The position numbers were made by a program, and so were the translations under genes. The notes under the pieces were generated by a model. The model saw only the letters and a list, made by a program, of their open reading frames with translations, made no database searches and was not told where the DNA came from. From Conexibacter sp. DBS9H8 (GTDB taxonomy: Bacteria; Actinomycetota; Thermoleophilia; Solirubrobacterales; Solirubrobacteraceae): a DNA stretch of 64,000 nt. Shown here in pieces: positions 4,563-52,430 of this stretch; the first letter of the stretch is position 1; each line of letters opens with the position of its first letter. The DNA is taken from contig NZ_CP097128.1 in NCBI RefSeq assembly GCF_023330685.1, positions 1,178,001 to 1,242,000 of the forward strand. Direction: 5' to 3'.

Positions 4563-5299
4563 CTAGACGCTCTGGAAGAAGTTCAGGTTGAAGTGGCTGA
4601 GGAACTGCTGTGCCTGGATGTTGAGCTGGAACAGCTCCCCGGTGAGTACCAAGTACCCCATCCCGATCAACACCAGTCCTGAGCCGACCTGGATCGCGGA
4701 GTAGTGGCGTTTGAAGAAAGTAAATGCTCGTGTTGCTGCGTTGAAAGCAACTGCAGAGAACAGGAACGGCAACGCCAGTCCGGCCGAGTAGACGGCAAGC
4801 AGCAGCCCGCCCTTAGCTGTCCCGCCCGCCGTGGTGGCGAGCCCGAGAATCGCCCCCAGCGTAGGGCCGACGCAGGGTGTCCAAGGCGAGCGCGAACGCC
4901 GCTCCGGCGACGACGGGGCTGCCCCGGCCCGCACGTTGGAGCAGTGCGGGCGGGCGAAACTCACGATTGAGGCGCAGGACGAACACGGAGGCCAGGAACA
5001 GCACTCCCATCGGATGATCAGCACCCGGAGACCCGCTCGAACGCCGGTCGGTTGGTGAACAGCCATGAACCGAGCGCAGTCGCGGCAAGCCCCGAGAGAA
5101 CAAAGATCGTGGAAAAGCTCCCGACAAAGAGCAGGCTTCGACCGAGGACCCGTCGGTCGAAGCCACCATTTCGCAGCTCGTCGGCTCCCGTGCCCGACAC
5201 CGTGGCAAGATAGCCGGGAACCAAGGGTAAGCAGCACGGAGAGACGAACGACACGATCCCCGCCGCCAGTGCCAGCAGCAGGCTCGGGCTACCGACCAC
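4563..5299 (-). pseudogene. ccdA-like cytochrome c biogenesis gene, frameshifted
   Basis: CcdA proteins are six-helix membrane proteins that carry electrons from cytoplasmic thioredoxin to extracytoplasmic thiol proteins. This copy matches the intact paralogue at 13425-14162 along its whole length, from SFVSPCCLPLVPGYLATV to the shared end LNFFQSV, but the frame breaks. Compared with the paralogue I see two single-base losses close together near 5020-5035 and one inserted T near 4890 just before WTPCVGPT. No single frame covers the protein. Its ATG (5299) faces the split tlpA gene at 5484, a divergent thiol-redox pair. The indels sit in short homopolymers, so sequencing error should be excluded. 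Confidence 0.85.
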
Positions 5300-5644: not shown

Positions 5645-7037
5645 GGCGCTTGTGACGTCTTCGTGGGTGCAGTGACCGGCTGAGATAGGGGCGCACGCCC
5701 CGTCGCTTCTAGGCTTTCCGGCTTCTTCAGGGCTGGAAATCTCAGGAGGCGAAACGAGACGTGCGCAGCATCAGGGTATGGGCGCGGCTGCTTGGGCTGC
5801 GCGGAGCGGTGATCGAGGACGTGACGGTCAACGACGCTGGGGACGGGGTAGAGGTCGTCGTGGCGGTCCGGCCGGGCTGGCGCGAGCGGGACCGGTGCGG
5901 GATCTGTGGACGGCGTTCGGGTCGGTTCGATCGTGGTGGCGGGCGGCGGCGCTGGCGCGGATTGGATCTCGGGACGTCGTTCTGCTGGATCGAGGCCGAC
6001 GCGCCACGCGTGCGCTGTTCTCGTCACGGCGTGGTCGTCGCGAGGGTGCCGTGGGCGCGCCACGATTCGGGGTTCACGCGCGCGTTCGAGGACCAGGTGG
6101 CGTGGCTGGCTGTCAACTGTTCCAAGAGTGCAGTCGCTCAGTTGATGCGCTGCTCCTGGCGGAGCGTCGGACGGATCGTTGAACGCGTCTGCAACGAACA
6201 GCGCCTCAAGGTCGATCTTCTGTCGGGCCTGCGGAGCATCGGGATCGACGAGATCTCGCACCGACGCGGTCAGAGATACCTGACCGTCGTAGTCGATCAC
6301 CACACCGGCCGGCTGGTGTGGGCCGCCCCGGGCCGTGACCGCGCGACAGTCCTTGTGTTCTTCGCCACCCTGGGCGAAGAGCGCTGCAAAGAGATCGAAT
6401 CGGTGTCCTGCGACATGGCCGGCTGGATCAGCTCGGCGGTCGCTGAGGCCGTCCCCCAGGCCGAGCGGTGCGTGGACCCGTTCCACGTTGTTCAGCTGGC
6501 GAGCGACGCGCTGGACGAGGTCCGCCGTGAGCTGTGGCGCGAGGCTCGCCGGGAGAAGAACCTGACGCTCGCCAAGGACCTCAAAGGCGCCCGGTTCTGC
6601 GTGTGGAAAAACCCCGAGAACCTGACCGACAAACAGCAGGCCAAGCTCGCGGTGATCCAGAAGCTCAACGGGCCGCTCTACCGCGCGTACCTGCTCAAGG
6701 AACAACTCCGCCAGATCTACCGGGCCGACAGTCCCGAGGAAGCCGAGGCGCTGCTGGACGGCTGGCTGTGCTGGGCTCGGCGATGTCGCCTGCCAGCGTT
6801 CACCAAGCTCGCCCGGACGATCAAAGCCCAACGTGACGGGATCCTCGCCGCCGTCCGCCTCGGACTGTCCAACGCCCGAGTCGAACAGATCAACACCCAG
6901 ATCCGGCTGATCACCAGACGCGCTTACGGGTTTCACAGCGCTGCGGCGTTGATCGCACTCGCGATGCTCACGCTATCCGGGCTCTGCCCGCCACTCCCAG
7001 ACCGGGTGAAATGACCCACGAACACGTCACAAGACCC
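5645..7037 (+). mobile_element. ISL3-family insertion sequence with intact ends and 8-bp target duplication
   Basis: The element is 1393 bp. The left end starts GGCGCTTGTGACGTCTTCG; the right end, read inward, starts GGGTCTTGTGACGTGTTCG. The terminal inverted repeats agree in about 21 of 24 positions, both starting GG and containing CTTGTGACGT. It is flanked by GCATTTGG at 5637-5644 and 7038-7045. An 8-bp duplication and GG-starting ends are typical of ISL3 elements. Both ends and the transposase are intact, so this looks recent and possibly active. Confidence 0.92.
5761..7014 (+). CDS. ISL3-family transposase
   Basis: 417-residue DDE transposase with a GTG start. The N-terminal zinc-binding region contains CGICGRRS (residues about 44-51) and a later Cys-x-x-His pair (RCSRHG), then a helix-turn-helix around SKSAVAQLMRCSWRSVGRIV. 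The catalytic core shows IGIDEISHRRGQ (first Asp), CVDPFHVVQLA (second Asp with the family HVVQ signature) and a Glu in NARVEQINTQIRLITRRAYG. The IDE, DxFHV and E-x-N-x-x-I pattern is characteristic of ISL3. It lies fully inside the element's inverted repeats; a GGAGG precedes the start by about 13 bases. Confidence 0.95.
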   Translation: MRSIRVWARLLGLRGAVIEDVTVNDAGDGVEVVVAVRPGWRERDRCGICGRRSGRFDRGGGRRRWRGLDLGTSFCWIEADAPRVRCSRHGVVVARVPWARHDSGFTRAFEDQVAWLAVNCSKSAVAQLMRCSWRSVGRIVERVCNEQRLKVDLLSGLRSIGIDEISHRRGQRYLTVVVDHHTGRLVWAAPGRDRATVLVFFATLGEERCKEIESVSCDMAGWISSAVAEAVPQAERCVDPFHVVQLASDALDEVRRELWREARREKNLTLAKDLKGARFCVWKNPENLTDKQQAKLAVIQKLNGPLYRAYLLKEQLRQIYRADSPEEAEALLDGWLCWARRCRLPAFTKLARTIKAQRDGILAAVRLGLSNARVEQINTQIRLITRRAYGFHSAAALIALAMLTLSGLCPPLPDRVK

Positions 7038-7607
7038 GCATTTGGTCTGCGCACCCGGGCGCCCGGCGGCGAGGCGGCCCGTCTGGCGCAGGGACATACC
7101 GCGGCTCCCGCGTTCCGCCTCCAGGTCCTGCGGCGAGGCAGCCTCGGCCATGCCTTCACCCCGTCGGTCAGCGGAGCGTTGGAGAGACCATACGTCGGGT
7201 TGCACGCGCTTGGCGGCGTCCCGATCGTGCTTAACATCTGGGCGTCGTGGTGCGTGCCGTGTCAGCAGGAGGCGCCGCTGCTCGAGCGCACTTGGGAACA
7301 CCAAGGGCGCCCGGGCGGGACCTTGTTCCTCGGACTCGATCAGCAGGATACGACTGGGGATGCGCGCGGCTTCCTGCGCCAGTACGGGATCGACTATCCG
7401 AATCTTCATGACGCCGGAAACGATGTCCCGCGTAACTACGGAGCCACCGGCGTCCCCGACACCTTCTTCATCGACGCCCAAGGGGACATCGTCGCTCACA
7501 TCATCGGAACCGCGTCCGCCAACCAGCTCAGTGCGGGGATCTCCGCGGCCAGAGCCGGGCATCCGCTGCAGGTGCGCCCCGGTGGCGCACGACGACACGC
7601 GCGGTAG
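7038..7607 (+). pseudogene. 3' part of the split tlpA/resA-like thioredoxin gene
   Basis: Carries the thioredoxin domain of the gene begun at 5484: the redox motif WASWCVPCQQEAP, then LFLGLDQQDTTGDARGFL and the cis-Pro segment YGATGVPDTFFID. It aligns closely with the intact paralogue ending at 9083, which shares NIWASWCVPCQ, FLGLDQQD and YGATGVP. The membrane anchor is on the other side of the ISL3 element. An ATG at 7011, inside the element, could give a cytoplasmic unanchored fragment of 198 residues, but that product would lose its location and probably its role. Confidence 0.85.
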
Positions 7608-8373: not shown

Positions 8374-8390
8374 TACTACGCAGCATAGGA
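8374..8390. promoter_or_regulatory. Candidate BlaI-type operator (site 1)
   Basis: TACTAC-gcagc-ATAGGA lies in the divergent gap between the oxidoreductase remnant and the SHOCT gene. It matches the pattern TACTAY-N5-RTMGNA seen at six other places in this region. Confidence 0.45.
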
Positions 8391-8417
8391 GCTGCATTAA
8401 GGAGCTAGTATTAGGGC

Positions 8418-8657
8418 ATGATGATGGGTTTCATGTCGCTGTGGATGCTGATCGGACTCTTGGTGCTCCTTGCCTTGGTCGGCGGGGTTGCGTCCTTGGC
8501 GATGCGGAGCGGTCATCGTCACCTTCCTCCCGGCGATGACGCCCGGACTCTGCTGAACCGCAGGCTCGCAGCAGGCGAGATCACCGCCGAGGAATACTTC
8601 GAGCGCGAGTCGGCGCTTCGCTCCGGCGAGCCGCGCCCTTCTCGTCGACGACGATAA
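8418..8657 (+). CDS. Small SHOCT-domain membrane protein
   Basis: 79 residues. One transmembrane helix (LWMLIGLLVLLALVGGVASL) is followed by a short C-terminal SHOCT-like motif, ARTLLNRRLAAGEITAEEYFERE, with the typical LxxRyArGEIdeeEyxxr pattern. Such proteins usually sit at the membrane and mediate oligomerisation; the precise role is unknown. An AGGAG lies upstream near 8399. The gene sits behind operator candidate site 1. Confidence 0.8.
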   Translation: MMMGFMSLWMLIGLLVLLALVGGVASLAMRSGHRHLPPGDDARTLLNRRLAAGEITAEEYFERESALRSGEPRPSRRRR

Positions 8658-8878
8658 GGAAACTCCCACACCCATCAGCCGCGTTCGAACGAGCTACGGC
8701 ACAGCACCTAGACTGCCACGACTGTCGCCGGAGCGCCGGGGTCTGCGTCCGGCTACTACCACACGTGCTAGATCGGCCACAGCCGAAAGAAAAGGCGCGG
8801 TGTGTTCGGAGGTCTCGCTGGTCCGCCGCCAAGGGCTTCTGCTTGGGCGGGAGAACGGCGCAAGACCGGGAGCCGGTG

Positions 8879-9028
8879 CTATGAGGCCTCGGCGTCCTGT
8901 TCTTTGTCAAGGCGCGCTCGCCGAAGGTCGGACGAGGCCTGATGCGCCTCAAGGGCGACGGTGGTGTCGACGTGCTCGGCGACCATCAACGCGTCGCGGT
9001 TCAGCGCAATCGGCGCGGGCGAGAGCAT
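8879..9028 (-). CDS. Possible 49-residue protein downstream of tlpA
   Basis: An open frame with strongly GC-biased third positions starts MLSPAPIALNRDALMVAEHV and ends EQDAEAS. It is hydrophilic with no membrane segment or recognised motif. It lies 54 bases downstream of tlpA on the same strand, so it could be co-transcribed. There is no clear ribosome binding site. The rest of the 8658-9082 stretch shows no convincing gene. I do not recognise a family. Confidence 0.35.
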   Translation of the reverse strand: MLSPAPIALNRDALMVAEHVDTTVALEAHQASSDLRRARLDKEQDAEAS

Positions 9029-9082
9029 CGGATGACCAGCGCCGGCACAGGCCTAATCTGACGGCGTGGGAGAGCCCCCGGC

Positions 9083-9736
9083 TCAGGTCGTCCCTTTAAT
9101 GTGGCCGCTGCGGGCTGCGGCTATCGCGGCCTTGAGTTGTCTTGCGGAACTCTGGCCGATGATGTGCGCGACGATCCGACCGCGCGCTGTGATGGCAAAT
9201 GTTTCCGGCACGCCGGTTGCGCCGTAGCTAGCGGTGACGTCATTTCCGTGGTCATGGATGTTGGGGTAGCTGATCCGGTAGCGGCGGATGAAGGCCGTCG
9301 CGTCGCGCGGGTCGTCCTGCTGGTCGAGGCCAAGGAACAGCACCCCGTCGGGGCGGGCTACTTGTCGCCATGCCTTTTCAAGTGTTGGCGCCTCAAGCTG
9401 ACAGGGCACGCACCAAGACGCCCAGATGTTCAGAATCACCGGGGTACCGTGAAGGTCCGACAGCGAGAGCGTGCCGCGTTCGAGCGCCGTAACGATTCGG
9501 GAACCGAACCTCGGGCCGAGCGATCCGCTGACGAGCACTGGTCGCCGAAAAGCGGGCGCATCCGGCGTCTGGCCACGTGCCAGCGCGGCCTCGATTGTGC
9601 CTGTAGACCCCTGTGCCAGCAGCCCGTAGGCCAGAAGCGCAATGAACCCGGTCACGACTGCCACGGCTGTGAGCGGGAGTAGCCATGATAGGCGCGCGGG
9701 CCGTGAGAGGTCGTCTGGTGGTGGCTCGGTGTTCAT
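9083..9736 (-). CDS. Membrane-anchored TlpA/ResA-like thioredoxin
   Basis: 217 residues. A cytoplasmic N-terminus, one transmembrane anchor (residues about 18-41) and an extracytoplasmic thioredoxin domain with Cys109-Val-Pro-Cys112 in NIWASWCVPCQLEAP. The cis-Pro loop is YGATGVPETF. Proteins of this type reduce disulfides in apocytochromes or metal-centre assembly proteins, fed with electrons by CcdA. An intact ccdA lies at 13425. The ATG overlaps the stop of an upstream frame (ATGA), suggesting coupling. It is the intact paralogue of the gene split by the ISL3 element. Confidence 0.88.
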   Translation of the reverse strand: MNTEPPPDDLSRPARLSWLLPLTAVAVVTGFIALLAYGLLAQGSTGTIEAALARGQTPDAPAFRRPVLVSGSLGPRFGSRIVTALERGTLSLSDLHGTPVILNIWASWCVPCQLEAPTLEKAWRQVARPDGVLFLGLDQQDDPRDATAFIRRYRISYPNIHDHGNDVTASYGATGVPETFAITARGRIVAHIIGQSSARQLKAAIAAARSGHIKGTT

Positions 9737-10115
9737 TTGGAAAAGCTGGGCGCCCTAATCTCGAACCGAGTATTGAAGGATCGGATCGCCTCGACCTCGG
9801 TGTACCGAGGAGTGACGAGCGTCGCGTACCACGCGAGGTCGGCGCGGGTGTCGATGTGGAGGATCCACCACACCGGTGTTCCCGGATCCATCAGTTCAAT
9901 GACCGCGCTGGATCGTCGTTTGTGTGGTGCGCGCTGATCAGCCAGACGGTCTGGGCGAACGTCGACCAGCGAAACCAGCGACTGGTCCCGAACGGAGGGA
10001 GCTCGTTGGACCCGTCATCTGAATCGCGCTGGTTAGCCTGGGTCGACAACGCACACAGCACAGCCCGCGTGATGCGCGTGTGACGTATGGCTCGCCACCC
10101 GATCTGAACCGTCAC
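9733..10115 (-). pseudogene. Possible frameshifted gene coupled to tlpA
   Basis: Upstream of tlpA on the same strand, one frame starts at a GTG at 10115 (VTVQIGWRAIRHTRITRAVL) and runs to 9891. A second frame with good composition (ELMDPGTPVWWILHIDTRAD) continues from about 9900 to a stop at 9733 that overlaps the tlpA ATG. Together they could be one gene with a frameshift near 9895. I recognise no family. The operator candidate at 10137-10153 stands 22 bases before the GTG, which supports transcription from there into tlpA. Confidence 0.35.
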
Positions 10116-10136
10116 GTCAGCTGCGCGCCGAAGCAC

Positions 10137-10153
10137 CACGATGCCGCATAGTA
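10137..10153 (-). promoter_or_regulatory. Candidate BlaI-type operator (site 2) before the tlpA operon
   Basis: On the - strand TACTAT-gcggc-ATCGTG. It closely resembles site 3 in front of blaI (TACTAT-gctgg-ATCGCA) and is well placed to control the tlpA transcript. Confidence 0.5.
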
Positions 10154-10369
10154 GCTGGAACCAACCCGAACGCGCGAGCACCATGAGCCGGTACCACCCG
10201 CACCACACGTGCAGTGCGGTGCACGGCGCCCACGTCCAAAACGCTAGGCAATCCGCCGGTGGGAGTTATAGCTGCGGATGCCGCGGATCGGCGTTGGCTC
10301 GTGGAAACCGGAGTGAGAGTGATGGGGCGGATTACAGTGACGTTGCAACACCAAACGCTGCTGTGGAGG

Positions 10370-10720
10370 CTGTAATACGGGACGACGACGAGAGCGCTCA
10401 GAGGTTCAGGCGGCGAAGCGGCAGCTGATCGCCCGGGGCGTCAACAACGGCGAGGCGTGCCGACTGATTTGGATTAGCCGCAAGATCGGGAACCGCTGGC
10501 GGCATTGGCCGGCCGATCCCGAATTTCGCCGGAATGCTTGTCCGTTCGGAGCCTACGACGTGCATGAGGACCGCTCCGACGGCGAGCTGCGGGCGCACAA
10601 GAACACCGGCGAGGTGCTCAACTGCTTCCGGCCACCACGTGCCCACTACCCCGGCGATCGACGGATCTACCTGGGTGATGGACAACCTTTCCACGCACAA
10701 GATCGAAGACATCCGCGCTG
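10370..10720 (+). pseudogene. Transposase remnants (helix-turn-helix and IS630-like catalytic pieces)
   Basis: Translated pieces include VQAAKRQLIARGVNNGEACR at about 10400-10460, typical of a transposase helix-turn-helix. A later segment, YPGDRRIYLG in one frame continuing as VMDNLSTHKIEDIRAG in another, resembles the second-Asp region (IYLVMDNLSAHK) of IS630-type DDE transposases. Several frameshifts separate the pieces and no full gene is present. Whether both come from one element is unclear. Confidence 0.5.
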
Positions 10721-10839
10721 GCCTCCGTATCGTCAGATCCGACGACGGAGTGTCGGAGCAGGTCGCGAGTCTAGGTACCCTCCCGATCGGCCCGGCAAGC
10801 TGTCTGATCGTCTTTGGGTCGACGGCTCGAGCGCAAGCT

Positions 10840-11110
10840 ATCCACTGCCGAACGCTGCCGGGCGCTTCAACCTCACCCAGGCCGAACTCATCTCCACCCG
10901 TCGCGCCACGTCGAGGTGGTGCCGGCGCGGACGAGCAGCTGCCGTTTCGCGAGGCGAACTTCAACACGGTGGTGGCCACAAATCGTGTTGTGCACGATTC
11001 CCGATCCTCAGGCGGGCGGCTGAGATCAGGCTTCCCTGGACGCCGGCGGGCGTCTGCTGTTCCTCGAGCACGTGCGCTCAGAGGAAGCGAAGGACGGCAC
11101 GCCGACAGGA
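10840..11110 (+). pseudogene. Class I SAM methyltransferase remnant
   Basis: Fragments of a UbiE-like methyltransferase appear in different frames: LPFREANFNTVVAT, then IVLCTIPDPQA, then GRLLFLEHVRSEEAKD. These match the order of the usual acidic loop, post-II (VLCTVPDP) and post-III (GGRLLFLEHV) motifs. Each join needs a frameshift and the N-terminal SAM-binding motif is eroded. The gene is dead. No convincing gene is seen from 11111 to 11349. Confidence 0.65.
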
Positions 11111-11349
11111 TCGCCTCGAGGTCCGTGAGGCTGGTTCGGACGCGGCCGCCACCCCAACCGCGAGCACCCCGAGGGCGATCGAGCCCTTCGAACTGAAGGT
11201 GGCGACGTTGAGCGGGATCAGACTCCGAAGGCCCCTCCCATTGTGCGTCCTTTGATCGTCGGCGAAGCGATGGACTCGCGCTTCGCATACGACTGCGAAA
11301 CGGCGCCGGCGTTGCAGCCTGCGGAGCTGCTGGCCCGGATGCCGACCGC

Positions 11350-12258
11350 CTACCGGCTCACCCACGCGCGGGCCGCGGCGACGACCAGAAGAGCCGGGAA
11401 CGCGAGCATGAACGGCCCGCAGCTCTGCATCAGCAGCAACATCAAACTGATGTGAGCGGTCGCGGTCGCATGTGCCACCAAAAGCACCGCAAGCATCAAG
11501 ACCCCAATAGTGAGTCCACCAGCGACCTGGAGCCGGAGCGGCAGCAGCGGCGGAGAGCCGCCCAGCAGGTGATCGACCCGTTCAGTGGAGACACCGACTA
11601 CGGCAGGGTCTCCGGCCTCGCCGAACGTGAGCATCGCCGAAGCCAGCGGCTGGGGACCGCCCCCGGCGCGAACTGCCGCCTCGTCGGCGGCGAGCTCCGA
11701 GACCATTGCGTAGTCACGGTTCATCCGCCGCATCGCGGGCACAAAGAAGAGACCGTCCCCGAGCGCCCGGGTGACGAGCAGGCGAAATGGATCTCGGACG
11801 CACGTGTGATGGGTCTCGTGGGCGAGGACGGATCGCAGCTCGTCTCGGTTCAGCCGCTCGAGTGCGCCGGTCGAGATGTAGATGCGAGGTTGCAGCAGCC
11901 CCGCGCAGAATGCTTGTGGAGCAGCGTCAGCCACTACCTCGACCGGCGGGTAACCGGGAAGCGTTTCGACGGGCTGCAGCGACCGTAGGTACCTGCTCGT
12001 GGAACGCTGGAGACGCAGTGCCGAGCTCAGCGTCCGGACGATCACCATCATGCCGATGGCACCGATTGCCATCGCCAGTAGCCCAACAGGGTCCAGGGTG
12101 GTCAGCCAAGAGCGGCAGGCCGCGAATGCCCGCGCCGCCGACGGGACGCTGAACGACATGGCGCGCAGAGCGACGGCCATCGAGGCGAGCGCGACCAGAA
12201 CGCCCGCCAGCGCAAGAGCGCCGTTCAGCCTGAACAACCGGTTCGCGTTAGAGCTCAT
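11350..12258 (-). CDS. M56-family (BlaR1-like) membrane metalloprotease
   Basis: 302 residues from an ATG at 12258 that overlaps the last codons of blaI by 11 bases. Transmembrane helices flank a zinc protease core with His147-Glu-Thr-His-His151 in LRSVLAHETHHTCVRDPF and a downstream SELAADEAA that could supply the third ligand. The protein ends in further helices. There is no C-terminal penicillin-binding sensor domain as in BlaR1 or MecR1. The usual role is to cut the cognate BlaI repressor when a signal is sensed; here the signal is unknown. The neighbours (ccdA, tlpA, copCD) suggest redox or metal stress. Confidence 0.85.
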   Translation of the reverse strand: MSSNANRLFRLNGALALAGVLVALASMAVALRAMSFSVPSAARAFAACRSWLTTLDPVGLLAMAIGAIGMMVIVRTLSSALRLQRSTSRYLRSLQPVETLPGYPPVEVVADAAPQAFCAGLLQPRIYISTGALERLNRDELRSVLAHETHHTCVRDPFRLLVTRALGDGLFFVPAMRRMNRDYAMVSELAADEAAVRAGGGPQPLASAMLTFGEAGDPAVVGVSTERVDHLLGGSPPLLPLRLQVAGGLTIGVLMLAVLLVAHATATAHISLMLLLMQSCGPFMLAFPALLVVAAARAWVSR

Positions 12259-12646
12259 CGCGAGCCAGCTTTTGTAGGCGGCGGAGGGTGGCTGGATCGG
12301 CGGACGTGAGCGCTCGCGCGAAGTGCGCCAGCGCCACGTCGCCGTACTCCTGAACCAGCCCGGCCACTTGCGCCCGCGCACGCCCTTCCCGGTACTCCCC
12401 CTGAGAGAGAGTCGGCACGTAAGTGTCGCTGCGACCGGTGCGCGTGCGGTCGAGCAGCCCCTTCTTGTGCAACCGCTGCATCACAGTCATGTAGGTCGTA
12501 TAGGCACGCGGAGTCGCCGCTACTTGATTGAGCGCCTCCATCACCTGCTTGACGTTCGTCTCGCCCCGGCGCCACACCTCCTGCATGATCTCGGCCTCCA
12601 GCTCGTACAGTGACGGCAGCGGCTCTGGCGTCCGCGAACGGGGCAT
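12248..12646 (-). CDS. blaI: BlaI/MecI-family repressor
   Basis: 132 residues from an ATG giving MPRSRTPEPLPSLYELEAEI; the open frame extends 12 codons further. The winged-helix DNA-binding domain shows EAEIMQEVWRRGETNVKQVM and RAYTTYMTVMQRLHKKGLLD, the BlaI recognition helix and wing, followed by a dimerisation tail. BlaI repressors bind dyads with TACTAC/GTAGTA half-sites and are cleaved by partner M56 proteases; the partner gene overlaps downstream. A candidate operator sits 101 bases upstream at 12747, and related sites precede several genes nearby. Confidence 0.9.
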   Translation of the reverse strand: MPRSRTPEPLPSLYELEAEIMQEVWRRGETNVKQVMEALNQVAATPRAYTTYMTVMQRLHKKGLLDRTRTGRSDTYVPTLSQGEYREGRARAQVAGLVQEYGDVALAHFARALTSADPATLRRLQKLARDEL

Positions 12647-12746
12647 CGGACCAAGGATATCCCCCTCATGCGGAGGGCACATCGACTGAAGGCCATCACG
12701 GCTGCTCGCCCAGGATAGGCGATCACCCCTGGTGCCATCTATTGGC

Positions 12747-12763
12747 TACTATGCTGGATCGCA
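12747..12763. promoter_or_regulatory. Candidate BlaI-type operator (site 3) in the blaI/ccdA divergent region
   Basis: TACTAT-gctgg-ATCGCA lies between blaI on the - strand and the TPR-ccdA transcript on the + strand, consistent with autoregulation and control of ccdA. Confidence 0.5.
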
Positions 12764-12839
12764 GCAAAGTGAGGGTGACCGTGACCACAACATTGTCTCA
12801 GCTGCGCAGGTGTGCGCTATCAGCCTCGGGAGACGTGGG

Positions 12840-13409
12840 CGCGCTAGCACCACCCGAAATGGCTCGGTCCACGACCGTCGCAAGGCGCTGGCGGCGCGTG
12901 GCCCCGGCCCGGCGTACGGCGCTTCCTGATCACCTTCGCCGTGCTGATCGTGTCGTTAGGCGTCTATGCCATGGGAGACCGGGCGCTTCGCCCGACCGGT
13001 CACTGCGCGCGGCGCCGTTCGCACCCACGCCGCGCCTCCCACCGGCCCTAGCCCGAGGGACAGTGCTGTTCGACCAGGCGTTGGGGCTCGACGAGGGCGG
13101 CCAGCTTGCCCTCGCGCTGCCGCTGTACGAGCAAGCCACAGCCACGTTGCCCCGGGGCGGGCAACGTCCGCGAACAGTACGGCTGGGCTCTCGCGCGCGG
13201 GACACCTCGCTCCAGCGCTTGGCGTGCGGCAAGCCCTGTCGCATGAACCGTCGCTCCCCGCGGCGCACCTGCACCTCGGCGCCGTGCTGCTGCGAGCCGG
13301 GAATCCAGCCCAGGCGCAGCGTCAGCTCAAGCGTGTGATCGCGCTCGATCCCACCGGGCCTACGGGCGCGCAAGCCAGAAACCTGCTCGCTACGATTGCG
13401 GATCGTTGA
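12840..13409 (+). pseudogene. Membrane-anchored TPR protein gene upstream of ccdA, frameshifted
   Basis: Pieces in three frames form a consistent order: a membrane segment (FLITFAVLIVSLGVYAMG, near 12925-12980), then LARGTVLFDQALGLDEGG and LALPLYEQATATLP, then QYGWALA, and finally LHLGAVLLRAGNPAQAQRQL and a clean C-terminus at 13409. This is the layout of anchored TPR proteins such as the C-terminal part of CcmH/CycH used in cytochrome c maturation. At least three frame changes are needed. It ends 15 bases before ccdA, so the two probably formed an operon. Confidence 0.6.
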
Positions 13410-13424
13410 TTCGCGTCTATTGGC

Positions 13425-14162
13425 ATGATTGGTAGCCCGAGCCTGCTGCTGGCGTTTGCCGCCGGAGTCGTGTCGTTCGTCTCGCCGTGCTGCCTGCCTC
13501 TCGTCCCCGGTTATCTGGCCACCGTGTGCGGCGCCCGCCCCGGTCAGGCCATGACCGGGAGGGTGGACCGTCGGGTCATGGCCCGGAGCGTGCTGTTCGT
13601 CGCCAGCTTCTCCATGATCTTCATCCTCTCAGGGCTCGCGGCCACGGCGATCGGATCGTGGCTATTTGCGAGTCGCACGACGCTGGAGCGGATCTCGGGT
13701 GTCCTGATCATCGCGATGGGCGCGCTGTTCGTCGGGTCGGTGTTCATCGTCCGTCTCAACCGCGAGTTCCGCCCGCACGCGCTGCTCGAGCGAGCCGGCC
13801 GTGGGGGACCGGTGCTGGCGGGAGCTGCCTTTGCGATCGCCTGGACGCCGTGCGTGGGCCCAACCCTGGGGGCGATCCTCGGGCTGGCCGCAACCGCTCC
13901 GGGGACCGCCAAGGGGGGGCTGCTGCTGGCGATGTACTCCGCCGGCCTCGCGCTCCCGTTTCTGTTCACGGCGATCGCGTTCAACACGGCCACGCGGGCA
14001 TTCGCCTTCTTCAAGCGCCACTATGCCGCGATCCAGATCGGCTCCGGACTGGTGATGGTTGGAATGGGATACCTGGTGATCACCGGCGAACTCTTCCAGC
14101 TGAACATCCAAGCCCAGCACCTTCTCGGGCACTTCGGGTTGAACTTCTTCCAGAGCGTGTAG
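13425..14162 (+). CDS. ccdA: CcdA-like cytochrome c biogenesis / thiol electron-transfer protein
   Basis: 245-residue membrane protein with six predicted helices. It has the two conserved Cys regions of the CcdA/DsbD core: SFVSPCCLPLVPGYL near residue 20 and AWTPCVGPTLGAILGLA near residue 140. CcdA passes reducing equivalents from cytoplasmic thioredoxin across the membrane to TlpA/ResA-type proteins, and an intact tlpA is at 9083. It is about three-quarters identical by eye to the broken copy at 4563-5299. It follows the damaged TPR gene closely and may be read from the region of site 3. Confidence 0.92.
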   Translation: MIGSPSLLLAFAAGVVSFVSPCCLPLVPGYLATVCGARPGQAMTGRVDRRVMARSVLFVASFSMIFILSGLAATAIGSWLFASRTTLERISGVLIIAMGALFVGSVFIVRLNREFRPHALLERAGRGGPVLAGAAFAIAWTPCVGPTLGAILGLAATAPGTAKGGLLLAMYSAGLALPFLFTAIAFNTATRAFAFFKRHYAAIQIGSGLVMVGMGYLVITGELFQLNIQAQHLLGHFGLNFFQSV

Positions 14163-14362
14163 AGCCGACACTCTGATGGGGATGGCGAACGACCAGACGA
14201 TCACGTTGAGCGTAGATCGCCAACGTGCCACTGAATCGCCTGATGCGAGGTAGCTTTCGTCGATGCTCGCCGCGCGAGCCGTTTAGCCCAGTGCTTGTCC
14301 GGCAGCGTCCGCCCCCCAATGGCCGTGTACTCGTGAGCGTCATCAACCCCTCGACTCCGGCG

Positions 14363-14379
14363 TACTACACTTCGTCGTA
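14363..14379. promoter_or_regulatory. Candidate BlaI-type operator (site 4)
   Basis: TACTAC-acttc-GTCGTA, with the same two half-sites as site 7 at 18691. It stands 19 bases before the GTG at 14399. The rest of 14163-14398 shows no gene. Confidence 0.55.
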
Positions 14380-14398
14380 ACAAACGACGGGAGGTCTC

Positions 14399-14668
14399 GT
14401 GGAGATCGCAACAATCAGCTCGATTCTGACTCCGCTCGCGTTTCTCGCATGCCCCGTGGGCATGGGAGCGATGATGTGGATGATGATGCGCGGCAACCGC
14501 AGCCGCCCCAATCAGCAGCCGACTCAGAGCCACGTTCCGGTGGCCGAGACATCCCCCCATCCATCCCTGGAGGTGCTGCGCGAGGAGCACCAACGCCTCG
14601 GTCAGCAGATCGAGCGGCTCGACAGCGGCCGGCGGGCAACCGCCGTCGGCTACGACGAGCAGCCGTGA
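14399..14668 (+). CDS. Small membrane protein with coiled-coil tail
   Basis: 89 residues, GTG start with GGGAGG 8-13 bases before it. One hydrophobic helix rich in Met ([23 protein letters not shown]) is followed by a polar linker and a heptad-like helix [19 protein letters not shown]. No enzyme motif. The Met cluster and one Cys in the membrane could bind soft metals, but this is speculative. The stop overlaps the next start (GTGA), so the pair is coupled. It is probably controlled by site 4. Confidence 0.7.
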
Positions 14669-14910
14669 GCGACTGGCTGTTTGGCCTGCTAGCGCTGGTG
14701 GCGGCTTCGCTGTGCCCGGCGCACATGTGGTGGCAGCATCGCCGCGGGCGACGTCCAGCCTGCTGCCCACCGTCTCAACCGTCGTCTTCGGTCAGCGACC
14801 GACTGCAGGATGAGCTGATCGTGCTCGAGCGCCGTCAAGCCGAGCTCGCGGCTCGGCTACAGCGCTTCGGCACGTCGATCGAGACACCGCAGGCGGGCGC
14901 GAGCCGCTGA
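14665..14910 (+). CDS. Small membrane protein, partner of the preceding gene
   Basis: 81 residues from a GTG overlapping the previous stop. It repeats the architecture of its neighbour: one N-terminal helix ([20 protein letters not shown]), a basic, Cys-containing linker (RRPACCPPS) and a coiled-coil helix [20 protein letters not shown]. The Cys-Pro-x-x-Met in the helix and the CC pair are possible metal ligands. The two proteins may form a hetero-oligomer; function unknown. Confidence 0.65.
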
Positions 14911-14950
14911 GCGCGGGCGGTGGGAACTTCAGGGTGGTGCCGCGGCCGGC

Positions 14951-16951
14951 TCACCGGCGGAACGGTGGGTAGCGGAAGCTGTTGCGGATCAGGTGGGCTG
15001 GCGCGTCGACGATCGTCTCCCGCAGGACGCGATCATGGCTATCGATCGTCATCCGGTACCAGATCTCGGAGGCCGGGAGCGCGAAGGCGAGCTCGGTTTG
15101 ACCGTCGTGGCGGCGCAGGATGTGAACGTCGCTGGCGCCGGCGGCGTAGGCCTCGACCTGACTGATCAGGTCCTGGCCGCTCACGATCGTATGGTCGGGG
15201 AGCACGTGGCTGCCCGGTCCGCTGGTGACGGTCTCGGTGAGCGCGAGCCGGGGGATCGCTCGCATCGTCTGCGTCACGCGCGCCAGCAGCGCCGGCTGAT
15301 TGGGTCCTGGCGGCCACGGAATCTCGATTCGTGCAGACCCGCCCTTCCACGGCGGGTCCGATGCCGTCACGGTGAGGGCGGTGATACCGCGGCGCAGGGC
15401 GTAGTGGAGCGTGAAGCAGGTCGTGCCGCAAGGCCGGGGAAACAGGTCGACTCCGGCCGGTCCTGTGCCCGGCGCGACGGCGTTGGCGGTCAATCGGATG
15501 CCGGGTCCCGGCGTCTCGGTCGGCGGGAGCACCGCAAAGCGCAGCTCCTCTGAGGTGGCGGTGACGCCGACCACCAGCTGGCCGGCCAGGTCCGCAAGCT
15601 GGAGCGTAGGCCCAGTTACCGGGGGCGGACCCAGCAGCGCGCGGGCGCGACGGGCCGCGGCCGGCGATGCCGCGACAGCGGGCTGCGGTGGCGCCGTGTT
15701 GGCCAGTACGCCGGCGGCGAGCAACACGCCAGCGAGCAGGCCCAGCTCCCCTCGGGTCAGGCGCCGTAGCAGCGGCAGGCGCAGTCCTGAATTAGACGGC
15801 AGGGCCCGCTTGCGCGCTGCCAGCGCGGTGGCGAGGGCAAGCGCGCCAAGGGCGCCCTTGGCCAGCAGCACGTTCCCGTAACTGGTGTCGACAAGCTGCC
15901 CAACGTGCTGGAACTCGGCCAGGGCGGTGATCACGCCGGCGCCGAGCATCACGCTCACCGTCCACAGCGCCAGCCGGGCGTAGCGCCGCAGGGGCTCGTG
16001 GAGTTCATGCGCCGTCAGCGCACGGCGGCCCCGGCTGATCACGAGCACGAGATGCGCGAGCGCGCCCGTCCACACTGCGGCGGCCGTAAGGTGCACCGTG
16101 TTGGCGGCAACGGCCCATGCGTGCCCGGAGCTTCCGGAATGACCTCGCCAGGCCGTGGCGAGGATTGCCGCAATCAGCGGCGCGACGGCTGCTTGCCGTC
16201 GCCAGAGTCCGATCCAGGCGGCCACTACTAGCGCGGCAAACAAGAGCAGCGTCAGCGCCCCCGACCGCGACCGAAGTGCGGCCCCCAGGGAGCTAAAGGC
16301 GGGCAGGATGCCGCCACCCGCGATCGCATGGGCCAGCAGCAGCATCAGCGCCAGCGACGCCGCCATAGCAAGCGCGATGCCGATCCGCACCGGTGCCGGG
16401 GCTATGGGATCCCCCCGACCTGCCTGGATCCGCCACACCGCGCGTTCGCTGACGGTGCCGCCGAGTGCGAGCGCCAGGCCGGCGAACAGCAGCCAACTCG
16501 CCACAGCCTGCCCCCAACCAATCTGCGCACCTGAGGCTAGGACGTGAGGTAGCACCGCGCCCGATCCCGCGGCGAACGCAAACTCGCCAACGGTAAGGTG
16601 CCCGTCACCGCTGGAAACGACCCGCCAGGACACGACGTACACGCCGCGCGTGGCAGTGGGCAACCGTTGAACGGCGACATTCCCCTGGACGGTCGGACGC
16701 GACAGCGGGATGCGGGCCCCCGCGGCGTCCCGCACGGAGACCCGCGTGGCCGTGGGCACGACGGCCACGCTGAAGTCCAGTGTGAGCTGCCGCGGCGCGC
16801 GCGCGAGCCGAGCGCCCTGGGTCGGGGTCGAGCGGATCAGGAACGCGTGCGCGGCCGCCGGCGCGGGCCGCAGCAGCATGAGCGCCCCAAACGCCAACGC
16901 CGCGACGCACAGGACAGCAGGCGGGCGTCGTCGGGCGAAGTTCCGGACCAT
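14951..16951 (-). CDS. CopC-CopD fusion, copper resistance/uptake protein
   Basis: 666 residues. A signal peptide ending in AAAHA exposes an N-terminal His, a known CopC copper ligand, followed by FLIRSTPTQGARLARAPRQL. The CopC beta-sandwich runs to about residue 130, with SSGDGHLTVGEFAFA containing the second His region. About eight membrane helices of a CopD domain follow, with conserved His in WRGHSGSSGHAWAVAANTVH. The last 200 residues are an extracytoplasmic domain of unclear role. Such fusions are common in actinomycetes for copper import or handling. Candidate site 5 abuts the ATG with only one base between them, leaving no room for a ribosome binding site, so a leaderless mRNA is likely. 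Confidence 0.88.
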   Translation of the reverse strand: MVRNFARRRPPAVLCVAALAFGALMLLRPAPAAAHAFLIRSTPTQGARLARAPRQLTLDFSVAVVPTATRVSVRDAAGARIPLSRPTVQGNVAVQRLPTATRGVYVVSWRVVSSGDGHLTVGEFAFAAGSGAVLPHVLASGAQIGWGQAVASWLLFAGLALALGGTVSERAVWRIQAGRGDPIAPAPVRIGIALAMAASLALMLLLAHAIAGGGILPAFSSLGAALRSRSGALTLLLFAALVVAAWIGLWRRQAAVAPLIAAILATAWRGHSGSSGHAWAVAANTVHLTAAAVWTGALAHLVLVISRGRRALTAHELHEPLRRYARLALWTVSVMLGAGVITALAEFQHVGQLVDTSYGNVLLAKGALGALALATALAARKRALPSNSGLRLPLLRRLTRGELGLLAGVLLAAGVLANTAPPQPAVAASPAAARRARALLGPPPVTGPTLQLADLAGQLVVGVTATSEELRFAVLPPTETPGPGIRLTANAVAPGTGPAGVDLFPRPCGTTCFTLHYALRRGITALTVTASDPPWKGGSARIEIPWPPGPNQPALLARVTQTMRAIPRLALTETVTSGPGSHVLPDHTIVSGQDLISQVEAYAAGASDVHILRRHDGQTELAFALPASEIWYRMTIDSHDRVLRETIVDAPAHLIRNSFRYPPFRR

Positions 16952-16952
16952 C

Positions 16953-16969
16953 TTCTACAGGGAATAGTA
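16953..16969 (-). promoter_or_regulatory. Candidate BlaI-type operator (site 5) at the copCD start
   Basis: On the - strand TACTAT-tccct-GTAGAA, ending one base before the copCD ATG. Confidence 0.5.
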
Positions 16970-17043
16970 GGTGAACCGAGGAGCCGACGCGATTCTGGAC
17001 GGAACAGGAGGACGAGGTGCCCCATAACCCGCGAGCGTCGACC

Positions 17044-17060
17044 TGCTAGCCACTGTAGTA
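17044..17060 (-). promoter_or_regulatory. Candidate BlaI-type operator (site 6)
   Basis: On the - strand TACTAC-agtgg-CTAGCA, 13 bases before the ATG of the His-rich membrane protein on the + strand. The second half-site is weaker than at sites 4 and 7. Confidence 0.4.
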
Positions 17061-17073
17061 ATCTCGACCGCCG

Positions 17074-17871
17074 ATGGCCAGCCGCAAGGAACAGAAGGAG
17101 CGTGCACGACAAGAGCGTCTGGCTCGCGAAGCGGCGTTCGAGGAGGCCACGCGCCGCAAGCGCCTGTTCATGCTCGCCGGCGGCGGCGCGGCGGCGATCG
17201 TAATCGTCGCGATCGTCATTGTGAGCACCATCGCCAGCGGCGGCCCGAGCATCGCGCAGCGGCTCAGCACGCGGGGGTCTGCACCGAAGCTCAAGCTCAG
17301 CTCGCTCGCTTCATTGGGTCACCTCACTGCCCCTCCGCAGCCAACCTCGCTGAGCCCCGAGGGGATCCCAGTCTTCCAGGCACAGGCGCTTGCCGGCACC
17401 GGATCGGCGGCCAGAGGCGAGACCGTCGACGGCATCCAGTGCCAGGGCAGCGAGCAGTCCCTGTTTCACATCCACGCTCATCTAACGATCTTCGTCGACG
17501 GTGCCGCCCGCCAAGTGCCCTACGGCATCGGCATCCCAAACGCACAGGTGCAGAACACTCCGCAGGGCGCATTTGTCGGGGGCGGCAGCTGCCTGTACTG
17601 GCTGCACACCCACGCCGCCGACGGGATCATCCACATCGAGTCCCCGGTCCAGCGCACATTCACGCTCGGCGACTTCTTCGACATCTGGGGGCAGCCGCTG
17701 GGGCCGGCGAGAGTCGGGCCGGCCAGCGGAGCGGTCACCGCCATCTACGACGGCAAGCTCTACGACGGCAACCCGCGTGACATTCCGCTCCAGGCCCACG
17801 CCCAGATCCAACTCGACGTGGGCCGCCCGCTCGTCAAACCGGTATCGATCCACTTCGTTAGCGGCCTTTGA
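17074..17871 (+). CDS. Membrane-anchored His-rich extracytoplasmic protein
   Basis: 265 residues. A highly charged cytoplasmic N-terminus (KEQKERARQERLAREAAFEE) precedes one transmembrane helix (about residues 31-52), then an extracytoplasmic domain. Two His clusters stand out: LFHIHAHLTIFVDG and YWLHTHAADGIIHIESP, each with alternating His on predicted beta strands, as in cupin-like metal sites. The single Cys pair (IQCQG and GSCLYW) may form a disulfide. I recognise it only as an uncharacterised actinobacterial protein type. Between copCD and a Met-rich protein, copper binding is a reasonable guess. No gene is seen in 17872-18079. Confidence 0.75.
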   Translation: MASRKEQKERARQERLAREAAFEEATRRKRLFMLAGGGAAAIVIVAIVIVSTIASGGPSIAQRLSTRGSAPKLKLSSLASLGHLTAPPQPTSLSPEGIPVFQAQALAGTGSAARGETVDGIQCQGSEQSLFHIHAHLTIFVDGAARQVPYGIGIPNAQVQNTPQGAFVGGGSCLYWLHTHAADGIIHIESPVQRTFTLGDFFDIWGQPLGPARVGPASGAVTAIYDGKLYDGNPRDIPLQAHAQIQLDVGRPLVKPVSIHFVSGL

Positions 17872-18079
17872 TCTGTCAGTGCTCGCGGCGCGAGTCGCCG
17901 ACCATCAGGGGTGAGGCGCCCAGAGCCTCTGCGAGCTTCTGGGCGTAGCGGCCGGCGCCACAACCCGCGAGCTGTCGCTGCTCCGCTGAACGACCGAGCG
18001 CCCCGACGGCAACGGTCCGGGCGTGCCGGAAAGGACATCTGCGCGTCCGGATGCGCGCGTGCGAGTGAGATCAGCTCAG

Positions 18080-18264
18080 ATACCGCGCCCGAAAGCACGC
18101 GCTCACATGCTTGCCGTGGTTGTTGATCAAATCCGTCCGAGGCCTAAACTGCTTCATCACCTCGATGAGGTAGGTCCGCTTTTCCACCATCCGAATCACT
18201 CCGTCCAGATGGCCCCACTCGTCTTGAGTCGGTTGACTGCCGAGGGCTTGTACTCCTGCTGCAT
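18080..18264 (-). pseudogene. CsoR-type copper-sensing repressor remnant
   Basis: The ATG at 18264 gives MQQEYKPSAVNRLKT, then a frame break near 18215. The next frame reads GHLDGVIRMVEKRTYLIEVM, the CsoR/RcnR helix core that normally follows RLKrixGQvrGv. The later part is degraded and the usual Cys-His-Cys copper ligands cannot be placed. The ATG is 2 bases after the stop of the Met-rich gene, so the pair was once a copper-responsive operon. The loss may leave the operon under BlaI-type control only. Confidence 0.65.
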
Positions 18265-18266
18265 CG

Positions 18267-18626
18267 TCAACCTCCCATGTACGCATGCATCATCGCCTCC
18301 ATCTGGGGAGGTACCTCGATTATCTGCTCGTACAGGCGCCGCATCCCGCGGTCCCGGAGCATCGCCTCATGCTCACGCACCATCGCCTGGTGCAGCCGGC
18401 GCGTCACAGGGCCGCGCATCATCTTTCCGCGGTGGGCCGCCATCATCTCGGAGGCCCCCCCGACACCGGGCCCGACCATCATTGAGCCGGCGTCCGCCAT
18501 CATCGACGCTTCCGCTGGGCGGGCCTGGGCAGCCGCCGGCGCGGGATTAGCGCTGACCCCGCCAAGATAGCCGACCGTACCGATCGCAACTGCGCCAGCA
18601 GCGGCAGCAATAGCTCGCCTTCGCAT
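18267..18626 (-). CDS. Secreted Met-rich small protein, possible copper-binding
   Basis: 119 residues with an N-terminal signal segment (IAAAAGAVAIGTVGYLGGV) and a processed region very rich in Met: SMMADAGSMMVGPGVGG, SEMMAAHRGKMMRG, MEAMMHAYMGG. Paired and spaced Met plus His is typical of extracytoplasmic Cu(I) carriers. No Cys. It lies directly upstream of the csoR remnant in one transcript and behind candidate site 7, which fits copper handling. Confidence 0.7.
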   Translation of the reverse strand: MRRRAIAAAAGAVAIGTVGYLGGVSANPAPAAAQARPAEASMMADAGSMMVGPGVGGASEMMAAHRGKMMRGPVTRRLHQAMVREHEAMLRDRGMRRLYEQIIEVPPQMEAMMHAYMGG

Positions 18627-18690
18627 CCTGTGCTCCTTCTATCGCCTACGGACTCCACCCGGGGTGGTCGCCTCCTAACACTAGCATTTC

Positions 18691-18707
18691 TACTACCTGG
18701 CGTCGTA
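18691..18707. promoter_or_regulatory. Candidate BlaI-type operator (site 7)
   Basis: TACTAC-ctggc-GTCGTA, the same half-sites and spacing as site 4, 64 bases before the Met-rich gene start. Confidence 0.55.
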
Positions 18708-51478: not shown

Positions 51479-52429
51479 TCACCCGGAGCCCGCGCCCCGC
51501 CGGGCGCGCGGGCCGACCACGGGACCGACGAACGCCCACAGGCTGATGACGAGCAGCGTGCAGGTGGCGATCCCCAACCACAGGCTCGTCGTGTGAACGG
51601 AGAGACAGATCGTGATGAGGATGCCCGTGCTGACGGCAAGGGTCGCGAGCCGCACGCCGCTCTCGGCTCGCAGCGGCGACGTGCCCGGGGCGGGGCCGAG
51701 CCGGTCCAGGCGGCGCCGGAGCGTCGCGGGATCCGTTCCGTCCGCCGGATCGCCGGCACCGCTGATCGTCTCAAGGGCGCTCTGTACCGCGGAGGCATCC
51801 CCGAGCCGGTGGGCGGCCGCCCGGTCGGCGAGGACGTCGAGTTCGCGCGTGATGATCTGCGCCGCCCGCCGGGCCGGGGCGAGGTTGAAGGAGGCGTGCG
51901 TGATCGCGGTGGCGGCCATCAGCAGCCGGCCGTGGTGATGATCGGCGTGCTCACGCTCGTGTTCGATGACCGCGAGGGTCTCGGACGGGCTGAGCCGCTC
52001 GAGCAGGCCACGGGAGACGAACGTCTGCGATCCCGCCGCAAAGGCGAGCAGGTCGCTGACGGGGATCACCGCGACCTCACTGCTCGCCCCGGTCGGGGTG
52101 AGGCGATGCGCGATCTCGGCCAGCGCCCGCCAGCGCCGGCGGATGATGACCGTCCGGGCGGTGGCGCGGCCGGCGAGCACGGCGAGCAGCACGAGCCCGA
52201 GCAGCACCACGAGACCGCCCGGCAGCGGGCGGTCTCGGCCAATGCCACGGGCGCTGAGACAGACGATCAGGGCGACCGGAAGGGCGCCGATGCCCGCCAG
52301 GGTGATGGATGCGAGGACGATCAGCGCCTGGGGGGAGGCCCCGCGGCGCGACGCCCAGCGATCGACCGCCGCGGGGAGCAACGCGAGCACGGCTGCGAGC
52401 GCCAGGATGGTGAGCGTCCCGGCGCCCAT
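51479..52429 (-). CDS. M56-family (BlaR1-like) membrane protease, second copy
   Basis: 316 residues from ATG 52429, one base after the blaI stop. Helices at the N-terminus (LTILALAAVLALLPAAVD and others), zinc motif His157-Glu-Arg-Glu-His161 in TLAVIEHEREHADHHHGR, and a downstream TRELDVLADRAAAHRLG for the third ligand. Further helices end the protein. Like the first copy it has no penicillin-binding domain. Its presumed target is the BlaI encoded just upstream, so the six-gene chain would carry its own sensor. Confidence 0.85.
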   Translation of the reverse strand: MGAGTLTILALAAVLALLPAAVDRWASRRGASPQALIVLASITLAGIGALPVALIVCLSARGIGRDRPLPGGLVVLLGLVLLAVLAGRATARTVIIRRRWRALAEIAHRLTPTGASSEVAVIPVSDLLAFAAGSQTFVSRGLLERLSPSETLAVIEHEREHADHHHGRLLMAATAITHASFNLAPARRAAQIITRELDVLADRAAAHRLGDASAVQSALETISGAGDPADGTDPATLRRRLDRLGPAPGTSPLRAESGVRLATLAVSTGILITICLSVHTTSLWLGIATCTLLVISLWAFVGPVVGPRARRGAGSG

Positions 52430-52430
52430 C

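What the first reader, a model, noticed from the sequence alone, without database searches (positions are those of the whole stretch)
8374..18707. Seven matching dyads suggest one BlaI regulon for copper and thiol-redox genes
Sites at 8374, 10137, 12747, 14363, 16953, 17044 and 18691 share TACTAY-N5-RTMGNA (17 bp). They lie 1-101 bases before the SHOCT gene, the tlpA operon, blaI/ccdA, two small membrane proteins, copCD, the His-rich protein and the Met-rich protein. Two sites have identical halves (TACTAC...GTCGTA). BlaI proteins are known to bind TACTAC/GTAGTA dyads. A BlaI regulon for extracytoplasmic copper and disulfide chemistry, instead of beta-lactam resistance, would be unusual.
Basis: partly seen in the sequence, partly recalled or inferred. 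Interest (0 to 1): 0.78.

Follow-up and report, generated by a model that had tools for sequence, protein, structure and literature searches.

The report
BlaI-linked copper and thiol-redox regulon
Seven matching DNA switches in a soil actinobacterium, conserved in its relatives, appear to put copper-handling and disulfide-repair genes under a repressor-protease pair best known from penicillin resistance, suggesting that the pair reads a different signal here.

Summary
The dyads are real. A matrix trained only on relatives ranks the seven listed sites as the window's seven best. A seedless search of 40 relatives' loci returns the same inverted repeat, TACTA-N7-TAGTA, as the strongest (30 seen, 0.02 expected). 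Of 88 dyads in relatives, 4 lie inside predicted genes. Over 121 genomes the exact 5-bp-gap form is 25 times commoner than the average other gap, and 28 of 29 copies are in blaI-bearing genomes. Relatives carry dyads before the same gene classes (SmallA, BlaI/M56, SHOCT, CopCD, TlpA, CcdA, His-rich) and before a copper ATPase, DUF305 and DsbA genes. BlaI lacks CopY's cysteines; M56 lacks BlaR1's penicillin sensor. Best explanation: a protease-coupled BlaI repressor controlling envelope copper and thiol-redox genes, perhaps sensing through cysteines or methionines of M56 or SmallA/SmallB. Binding, inducer and cleavage are untested. New variant of a known kind.

The parts
8374..8390 (.). dyad, 27 bp before the SHOCT gene and 8 bp before the divergent FAD oxidoreductase
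   Evidence: exact match; rank 2, 22.8 bits; distances
8418..8657 (+). Met-rich SHOCT membrane protein, predicted target
   Evidence: PF09851 19.8 bits, below the cut-off of 27; in relatives 4 of 10 SHOCT genes sit in a unit led by a dyad
9083..9736 (-). TlpA-like thioredoxin, predicted target
   Evidence: PF00578 63.1 bits; WCVPC in the sequence
9850..9998 (-). degenerate C-terminal remnant of a CopCD gene between dyad 10137 and tlpA
   Evidence: two short matches to residues 651-698 of a 734-aa CopCD; the order copCD-tlpA occurs in L059 and L117
10137..10153 (.). dyad heading the copCD remnant-tlpA stretch
11350..12258 (-). M56 membrane metalloprotease without penicillin-binding sensor; predicted BlaI protease
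   Evidence: PF05569 41.6 bits (for the longer ORF 11350-12381); H147, E148, H151 invariant in 35 aligned; structure model pLDDT 87, distant BlaR1 matches
12248..12646 (-). BlaI-family repressor, 132 aa, no cysteine, recognition stretch RAYTTYMT
   Evidence: PF03965 76.7 bits (for the longer ORF 12248-12682); cysteine count; alignment; the start at 12646 is chosen from alignment
12747..12763 (.). dyad 100 bp before blaI (autoregulation)
   Evidence: exact match; rank 5, 17.2 bits
13391..13407 (.). candidate eighth, weak dyad 17 bp before ccdA
   Evidence: rank 8, 11.2 bits; about 0.29 expected per 64 kb at that score
13425..14162 (+). CcdA/DsbD-type transmembrane thiol transporter, predicted target
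   Evidence: PF02683 35.7 bits; 69% identical in L059
14363..14379 (.). dyad 19 bp before smallA
   Evidence: exact match; rank 1, 23.5 bits
14399..14668 (+). SmallA: membrane protein with conserved ACPxGMGxMMWxM
   Evidence: C18, P19, M22, M25, M29 in 13 of 13; in relatives 10 of 12 smallA genes sit in a unit led by a dyad
14665..14910 (+). SmallB: membrane protein with conserved CPxxMxWxxRRG and a second Cys
   Evidence: C17, P18, M21, C33 in 9 of 9
14951..16951 (-). CopCD fusion, predicted target
   Evidence: PF04234 65.9 and PF05425 51.2 bits
16953..16969 (.). dyad 1 bp before copCD
   Evidence: exact match; rank 4, 17.5 bits
17044..17060 (.). dyad 13 bp before the His-rich protein gene
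17074..17871 (+). His-rich membrane-anchored protein, predicted target
   Evidence: no Pfam family; 71% identical in L103
18267..18626 (-). Met-rich exported protein, predicted target
   Evidence: sequence; no Pfam family
18691..18707 (.). dyad 64 bp before the Met-rich protein gene
   Evidence: exact match; rank 3, 19.6 bits

Best explanation
The dyads (TACTAY-N5-RTAGTA, two half-sites in a 6-5-6 layout) are operators of the BlaI repressor at 12248-12646. A BlaI dimer sits on each, near the start of seven or eight transcription units including its own, and blocks transcription. The neighbouring M56 membrane protease, which lacks BlaR1's penicillin sensor, releases the block by cutting BlaI when the cell envelope meets a copper or thiol-redox signal; SmallA and SmallB, which carry conserved Cys-Pro/Met motifs in their membrane segments and head the blaI-M56 operon in several relatives, are likely partners in sensing. 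Derepression makes CopCD, Met- and His-rich metal binders, the thiol relay CcdA-TlpA and the regulators themselves. Shown by sequence: the dyads, their conservation, placement and gene content. Inferred: binding, repression, proteolysis. Conjectural: the signal and the sensor role of SmallA/B.
For: Clustering in one 10-kb stretch of 3.64 Mb. Relatives-only matrix ranks the seven sites 1-7. Seedless search returns the same repeat, all 30 copies intergenic. Over 121 genomes, 29 exact 5-bp-gap dyads against 17 over the 15 other gaps; 28 of the 29 lie in blaI-positive genomes (16 of 17 genomes; 45 of 121 have blaI) and 22 of 29 within 10 kb of blaI (3 of 17 for other gaps), counted by hand from the lists. 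Of 10 chosen genomes, 9 (all blaI-positive) have exact TACTAYN5RTMGTA places, 22 of 24 within 10 kb of blaI; the tenth, without blaI, has none (by hand). Dyad-led classes recur: SmallA 9 loci, BlaI/M56 7, SHOCT 4, CopCD 3, TlpA 2, His-rich 2, CcdA 1, plus a copper ATPase (TIGR01511 555 bits, cut-off 397), DUF305, DsbA, Lgt, Rieske. Genes of the nine labelled families sit in dyad-led units in 55 of 145 cases, other genes in 78 of 546 (genes of one unit counted each). The recognition stretch YTTxMT is nearly invariant alongside the operator and absent from the second BlaI in the window. No positioned -35/-10 element accompanies the dyad, arguing for an operator rather than a promoter.
Against: No binding or expression data exist. 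9 of the 41 relative loci have no dyad with at most one mismatch, among them L053, whose BlaI is 64% identical. Several dyad-led genes (PAP2, methyltransferases, an ABC transporter, an alpha/beta hydrolase) have no evident copper or thiol role, 7 of the 20 cluster representatives scanned match no Pfam family, and 12 of the 32 non-window clusters were not scanned. In other actinobacterial families the same dyad leads a cytochrome bd subunit, an L,D-transpeptidase and an FtrD-like gene, so copper may not be the general signal. SmallA-like proteins outside the order rarely sit beside BlaI: 2 of 8 short loci examined. Three CsoR-family proteins could sense copper in this genome.
Confidence: 0.74

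Rival explanations
1. The dyads are BlaI operators, but the regulon is a general envelope or cell-wall stress response (including beta-lactams or respiratory stress); copper and thiol genes are only part of it.
For: Dyad-led PAP2, Lgt, methyltransferase and ABC transporter genes in relatives; L,D-transpeptidase, CcsA-like and cytochrome bd genes behind dyads in other families; M. [quoted passage not shown]
Against: No beta-lactamase in the 20 cluster representatives and window families scanned; M56 here shows no penicillin-binding domain; copper and thiol families are over-represented behind dyads (55 of 145 against 78 of 546).
Confidence: 0.3
2. Another regulator, such as a CsoR-family protein or the second BlaI (52431-52865), binds the dyads.
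For: Three CsoR-family proteins and a second PF03965 protein in the genome.
Against: Exact dyads are found mainly in genomes with this BlaI and near its gene; nothing scoring 7.8 bits or more lies near the second BlaI, whose recognition stretch differs; the CsoR site as recalled is a G/C-rich sequence of another kind.
Confidence: 0.07
3. The repeats are promoter elements of an alternative sigma factor, not operators.
For: 60 of the 80 dyads with a gene start within 400 bp lie within 50 bp of one.
Against: Palindromic with a fixed 5-bp gap; no positioned -35 partner in 79 oriented site-gene pairs; some dyads are shared by divergent genes.
Confidence: 0.04
4. Chance or compositional artefact.
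For: The pattern was built after seeing the sites; two sites deviate.
Against: Genome-wide confinement, relatives-only matrix, seedless search, gap specificity.
Confidence: 0.01

Closest known systems
CopY/CopR copper repressors of Firmicutes (BlaI family)
   Same: BlaI-family relatives with copper genes as targets (PMC7253601, passages)
   Different: CopY binds copper itself through C-terminal CXC motifs and the operator RNYKACANNTGTMRNY (same passages); here BlaI has no cysteine, the operator is TACTAY-N5-RTAGTA, and an M56 protease is the neighbour
BlaI-BlaR1 / MecI-MecR1 beta-lactam systems
   Same: repressor plus adjacent M56 membrane protease; the M56 model resembles the BlaR1 membrane and protease part at low significance
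   Different: no penicillin-binding sensor, no beta-lactamase among targets scanned, other operator
Mycobacterial BlaI (Rv1846c) with sensor-less M56
   Same: 2g9w, the best of two sequence matches among solved structures, has AYTTVM against AYTTYM here (that it is Rv1846c is recalled); the M. tuberculosis BlaR1 homologue lacks a sensor domain (PMC9834060, passages)
   Different: reported targets are other genes (PMC12565901, passages); its operator sequence was not in the passages I saw
Clostridium thermocellum BlaI_0696 regulon
   Same: 6-bp inverted repeats five nucleotides apart (PMC8457756, passages)
   Different: GTCTAT half-sites; targets linked by its authors to antibiotic response

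Membership tests
BlaI/MecI/CopY repressor family (PF03965) | Penicillinase_R domain above the curated cut-off | tested here: met
   76.7 bits against 22.6
CopY/CopR copper repressors | C-terminal CXC metal site | tested here: not met
   0 cysteines in the 132-aa protein; at most 1 in each of the other 27 aligned proteins
CopY/CopR copper repressors | NCBIfam TIGR02698 above cut-off | tested here: not met
   38.9 bits against 121.95
CopY/CopR copper repressors | cop box KACANNTGTM | tested here: not met
   the conserved dyad is TACTAY-N5-RTAGTA; cop boxes were not searched for separately
BlaI-BlaR1 beta-lactam response | M56 protease beside the repressor | tested here: met
   PF05569; H147, E148, H151 invariant in 35
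BlaI-BlaR1 beta-lactam response | C-terminal penicillin-binding sensor in the protease | tested here: not met
   only M56, M48 and HtpX-type matches; the 302-aa model ends in a helix
BlaI-BlaR1 beta-lactam response | beta-lactamase or PBP2a target | tested here: not met
   none in 20 of the 32 non-window target clusters (one representative each) or in the window genes scanned; 12 clusters not scanned
Mycobacterial-type BlaI | AYTTxM recognition stretch with a TACTAC-type operator | tested here: inconclusive
   stretch met; exact dyads occur in family f32, but f32 is unnamed and the published operator was not seen
BlaI/MecI/CopY repressor family | dimer binds the inverted repeat | not testable with these tools
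   needs gel shift or footprint

The most novel reading that the evidence does not exclude
M56 metalloproteases form a class of one-step membrane sensors for copper or thiol redox state: the penicillin sensor of BlaR1 is replaced by intramembrane cysteines helped by SmallA/SmallB (CPxGM and CPxxM motifs) in Solirubrobacterales, and by a short, probably extracytoplasmic cysteine tail (C-x5-C-x6-CC) in other actinobacterial families where dyads lead ccdA; the signal is passed inward by cutting BlaI, giving an envelope metal/redox regulon that needs no cytosolic copper sensor.
Probability: 0.33. Interest if true: 0.8.

Novelty: new variant of a known kind. Interest (0 to 1): 0.64.

Why it matters
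BlaI with an M56 protease is usually read, and annotated, as beta-lactam resistance. A conserved operator set tying it to copper and disulfide genes, with no penicillin sensor, gives a concrete answer to what sensor-less M56 proteases might be for, links the operator to a recognition stretch, and warns against calling such genes resistance genes. It also offers named small membrane proteins as testable partners in sensing.

Tried and rejected
8754 (TACTAC-N5-GTGCTA), found by the palindrome scan, was rejected as a member: rank 11, 4.9 bits. A second gap class, 8 bp (33 hits), was explained as offset reading of 5-bp-gap sites: 30 of 33 overlap one. Direct copper sensing by BlaI was rejected for want of cysteines. 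A sigma-factor promoter was rejected for want of a positioned partner element. A one-mismatch scan of ten f26/f65/f75 genomes was uninformative: these AT-richer genomes give many scattered hits and the reversed control gives more. A second structure comparison was not available. Distances between C118 and C280 in the M56 model could not be measured, as no coordinates were returned.

Literature: ten full-text searches. BlaI family+M56+copper and BlaI+CopC+SHOCT gave no paper; BlaI+M56+cytochrome+operon gave two and BlaI+CcdA+transcriptional regulator eleven, eight of them listed, none on this subject by title and abstract start. Most subscription papers are not held, so absence in print is not shown. 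Five papers were seen as passages found by terms, not read through: PMC12565901, PMC8457756, PMC9834060, PMC4757040, PMC7253601; others only as search listings.
Full report
What is there. The window is positions 1,178,001-1,242,000 of a single 3.64 Mb contig. The closest of the eight named loci found with its BlaI are five Solirubrobacterales assemblies and one labelled Actinomycetes, at 57-68% identity. Between 8374 and 18707 lie seven 17-bp inverted repeats.

More than chance. The symmetric word TACTAC-N5-GTAGTA with up to two mismatches occurs at 12 places in the genome, 6 of them in this 10.3 kb, binomial 4.8e-13. A matrix from 86 distinct dyad strings of relatives, with no window sequence in it, ranks the seven listed sites 1 to 7 of all window positions, 15.8 to 23.5 bits, with 0.017 expected hits per 64 kb at the lowest score in Markov shuffles. 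A harsher control, the inside of predicted genes in relatives' loci, has 4 such hits in 436 kb, 0.59 per 64 kb. Eleven other near-match strings in the genome, copied, score at most 13.4.

Conservation. Of 121 genomes (the own one included), 45 encode a BlaI relative at E <= 1e-10; in the own genus it is patchy. The exact dyad with any gap of 0 to 15 bp occurs 29 times with a 5-bp gap and 17 times in all with the other 15 gaps (counted by hand; Poisson 1e-30). 16 of the 17 genomes with the 5-bp form have blaI (Fisher 2e-7), and 22 of the 29 dyads lie within 10 kb of it; 3 of the 17 with other gaps do. I took 41 stretches around blaI from 39 of the 44 blaI-positive relatives. They hold 88 dyads with at most one mismatch, in 32 of the 41 loci; 4 of 88 are inside predicted genes although 86.6% of the sequence is predicted coding, and 80 have a gene start within 400 bp (the gene calls come from my own simple codon model), 60 of them within 50 bp. 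Nine loci have none.

Which genes. Genes led by a dyad within 200 bp fall into 39 clusters. Seven clusters hold window genes: SmallA (9 loci), BlaI/M56 (7), SHOCT (4), CopCD (3), TlpA (2), His-rich (2), CcdA (1). Of the 32 others I scanned one representative each for 20 (some): F510_1955 family (5 loci), Rieske protein (4), PAP2/haloperoxidase-like (3), Lgt (3), DUF305 (3; also CopM-like, 82.1 bits, below its cut-off of 90), DsbA (3), DUF4396 (2), heavy-metal ATPases (2; one a copper type with CASC and CPC, TIGR01511 555 bits against 397; the other has SPC and fits the cadmium/zinc group better), several without an evident link to copper, and seven with no Pfam match. Genes of the nine labelled families sit in dyad-led units in 55 of 145 cases, other genes in 78 of 546 (genes sharing a unit are each counted). 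smallA-smallB-blaI-M56 forms an operon led by a dyad in several relatives; in the window smallA-smallB stand apart, with their own, best-scoring dyad.

The regulator. BlaI at 12248 is a PF03965 protein; the 132-aa form has no cysteine, so it is not a CopY-type metal sensor. Its recognition stretch YTTxMT is nearly invariant among relatives and in the dyad-bearing proteins of other families that I aligned, and resembles AYTTVM of structure 2g9w. The window holds a second BlaI with AHTTVST at 52431-52865, with no dyad nearby. The 6-5-6 layout equals that of a C. thermocellum BlaI motif found by DAP-seq (PMC8457756, passages).

The protease. M56 (302 aa) has an invariant HExxH pattern, long N-terminal and C-terminal helices in a confident model (pLDDT 87), and resembles M48/Ste24 proteases and the BlaR1 membrane-protease part at low significance. 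No sensor domain was found. C118 is kept in 40 of 42 and C280, in the last helix, in 32 of 40. SmallA keeps C, P and three M of ACPxGMGxMMWxM in 13 of 13; SmallB keeps CPxxM and a second Cys in 9 of 9. Neither matched Pfam or NCBIfam at E 0.01. SmallA-like proteins occur in 22 of 396 genomes of the phylum, but of 8 short loci from outside the order only 2 show BlaI nearby. That these proteins bind copper or feel thiol state is inference from residues.

Beyond the order. In 396 genomes of the phylum, 75 hold the exact dyad (places listed only in part). In 11 loci of families f26, f65 and f75, dyads accompany blaI-M56, with a divergent ccdA in 8 of the 11; in the one locus scanned the second dyad leads FtrD-like and FtsX/MacB-like genes (L156). 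The M56 there ends in C-x5-C-x6-CC in 11 of 12 proteins looked at. In f61 a dyad leads cytochrome bd subunit I; in f32 dyads lead an L,D-transpeptidase, a run of a weakly MerT-like gene, TlpA, BlaI and M56, and a CcsA-like gene. So the operator is shared widely and the regulon varies; extracytoplasmic redox chemistry recurs, copper is clearest in Solirubrobacterales.

The window copy is partly worn: a copD C-terminal remnant lies between dyad 10137 and tlpA, a UbiE-like methyltransferase remnant at 10904-11269 (a family that is dyad-led in L061 and L115), and a partial ccdA at 5024-5299.

Verdict. A BlaI-M56 regulon for envelope copper and thiol-redox genes: operator set and gene content shown, binding and signal inferred. 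New variant of a known kind.

Noticed in passing
window 51479-53992 (-): A second BlaI-family gene with a metalloprotease-like neighbour (PF01435) and a thioredoxin-like protein (weak match), without dyads and with a different recognition stretch.
   Followed up: partly
L156-L164, L166, L167 (families f26, f65, f75): M56 proteases ending in a short cysteine tail, C-x5-C-x6-CC, in 11 of 12 looked at: a candidate metal or thiol sensor in place of BlaR1's penicillin sensor.
   Followed up: partly
window 5761-7014 and 7011-7607 (+): An ISL3-type transposase gene followed at once by a second TlpA-like gene.
   Followed up: no
window 9850-9998 (-), 10904-11269 (+), 5024-5299 (-): Remnants of copCD, a UbiE-like methyltransferase and ccdA: the cluster seems partly decayed.
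   Followed up: partly
G037 and G057: The identical dyad TACTATGACGAATAGTA occurs four times, two per genome, over 50 kb from or on another contig than the blaI matches; possibly part of a repeated element.
   Followed up: no
own genome 1041617, 3128112, 3419058: The string TACGACGAAAAATCGCA occurs three times (in either orientation), likely inside a repeated element.
   Followed up: no
own genome 1172351-1172584: A CsoR-family gene about 14 kb from the cluster; the genome has three.
   Followed up: no
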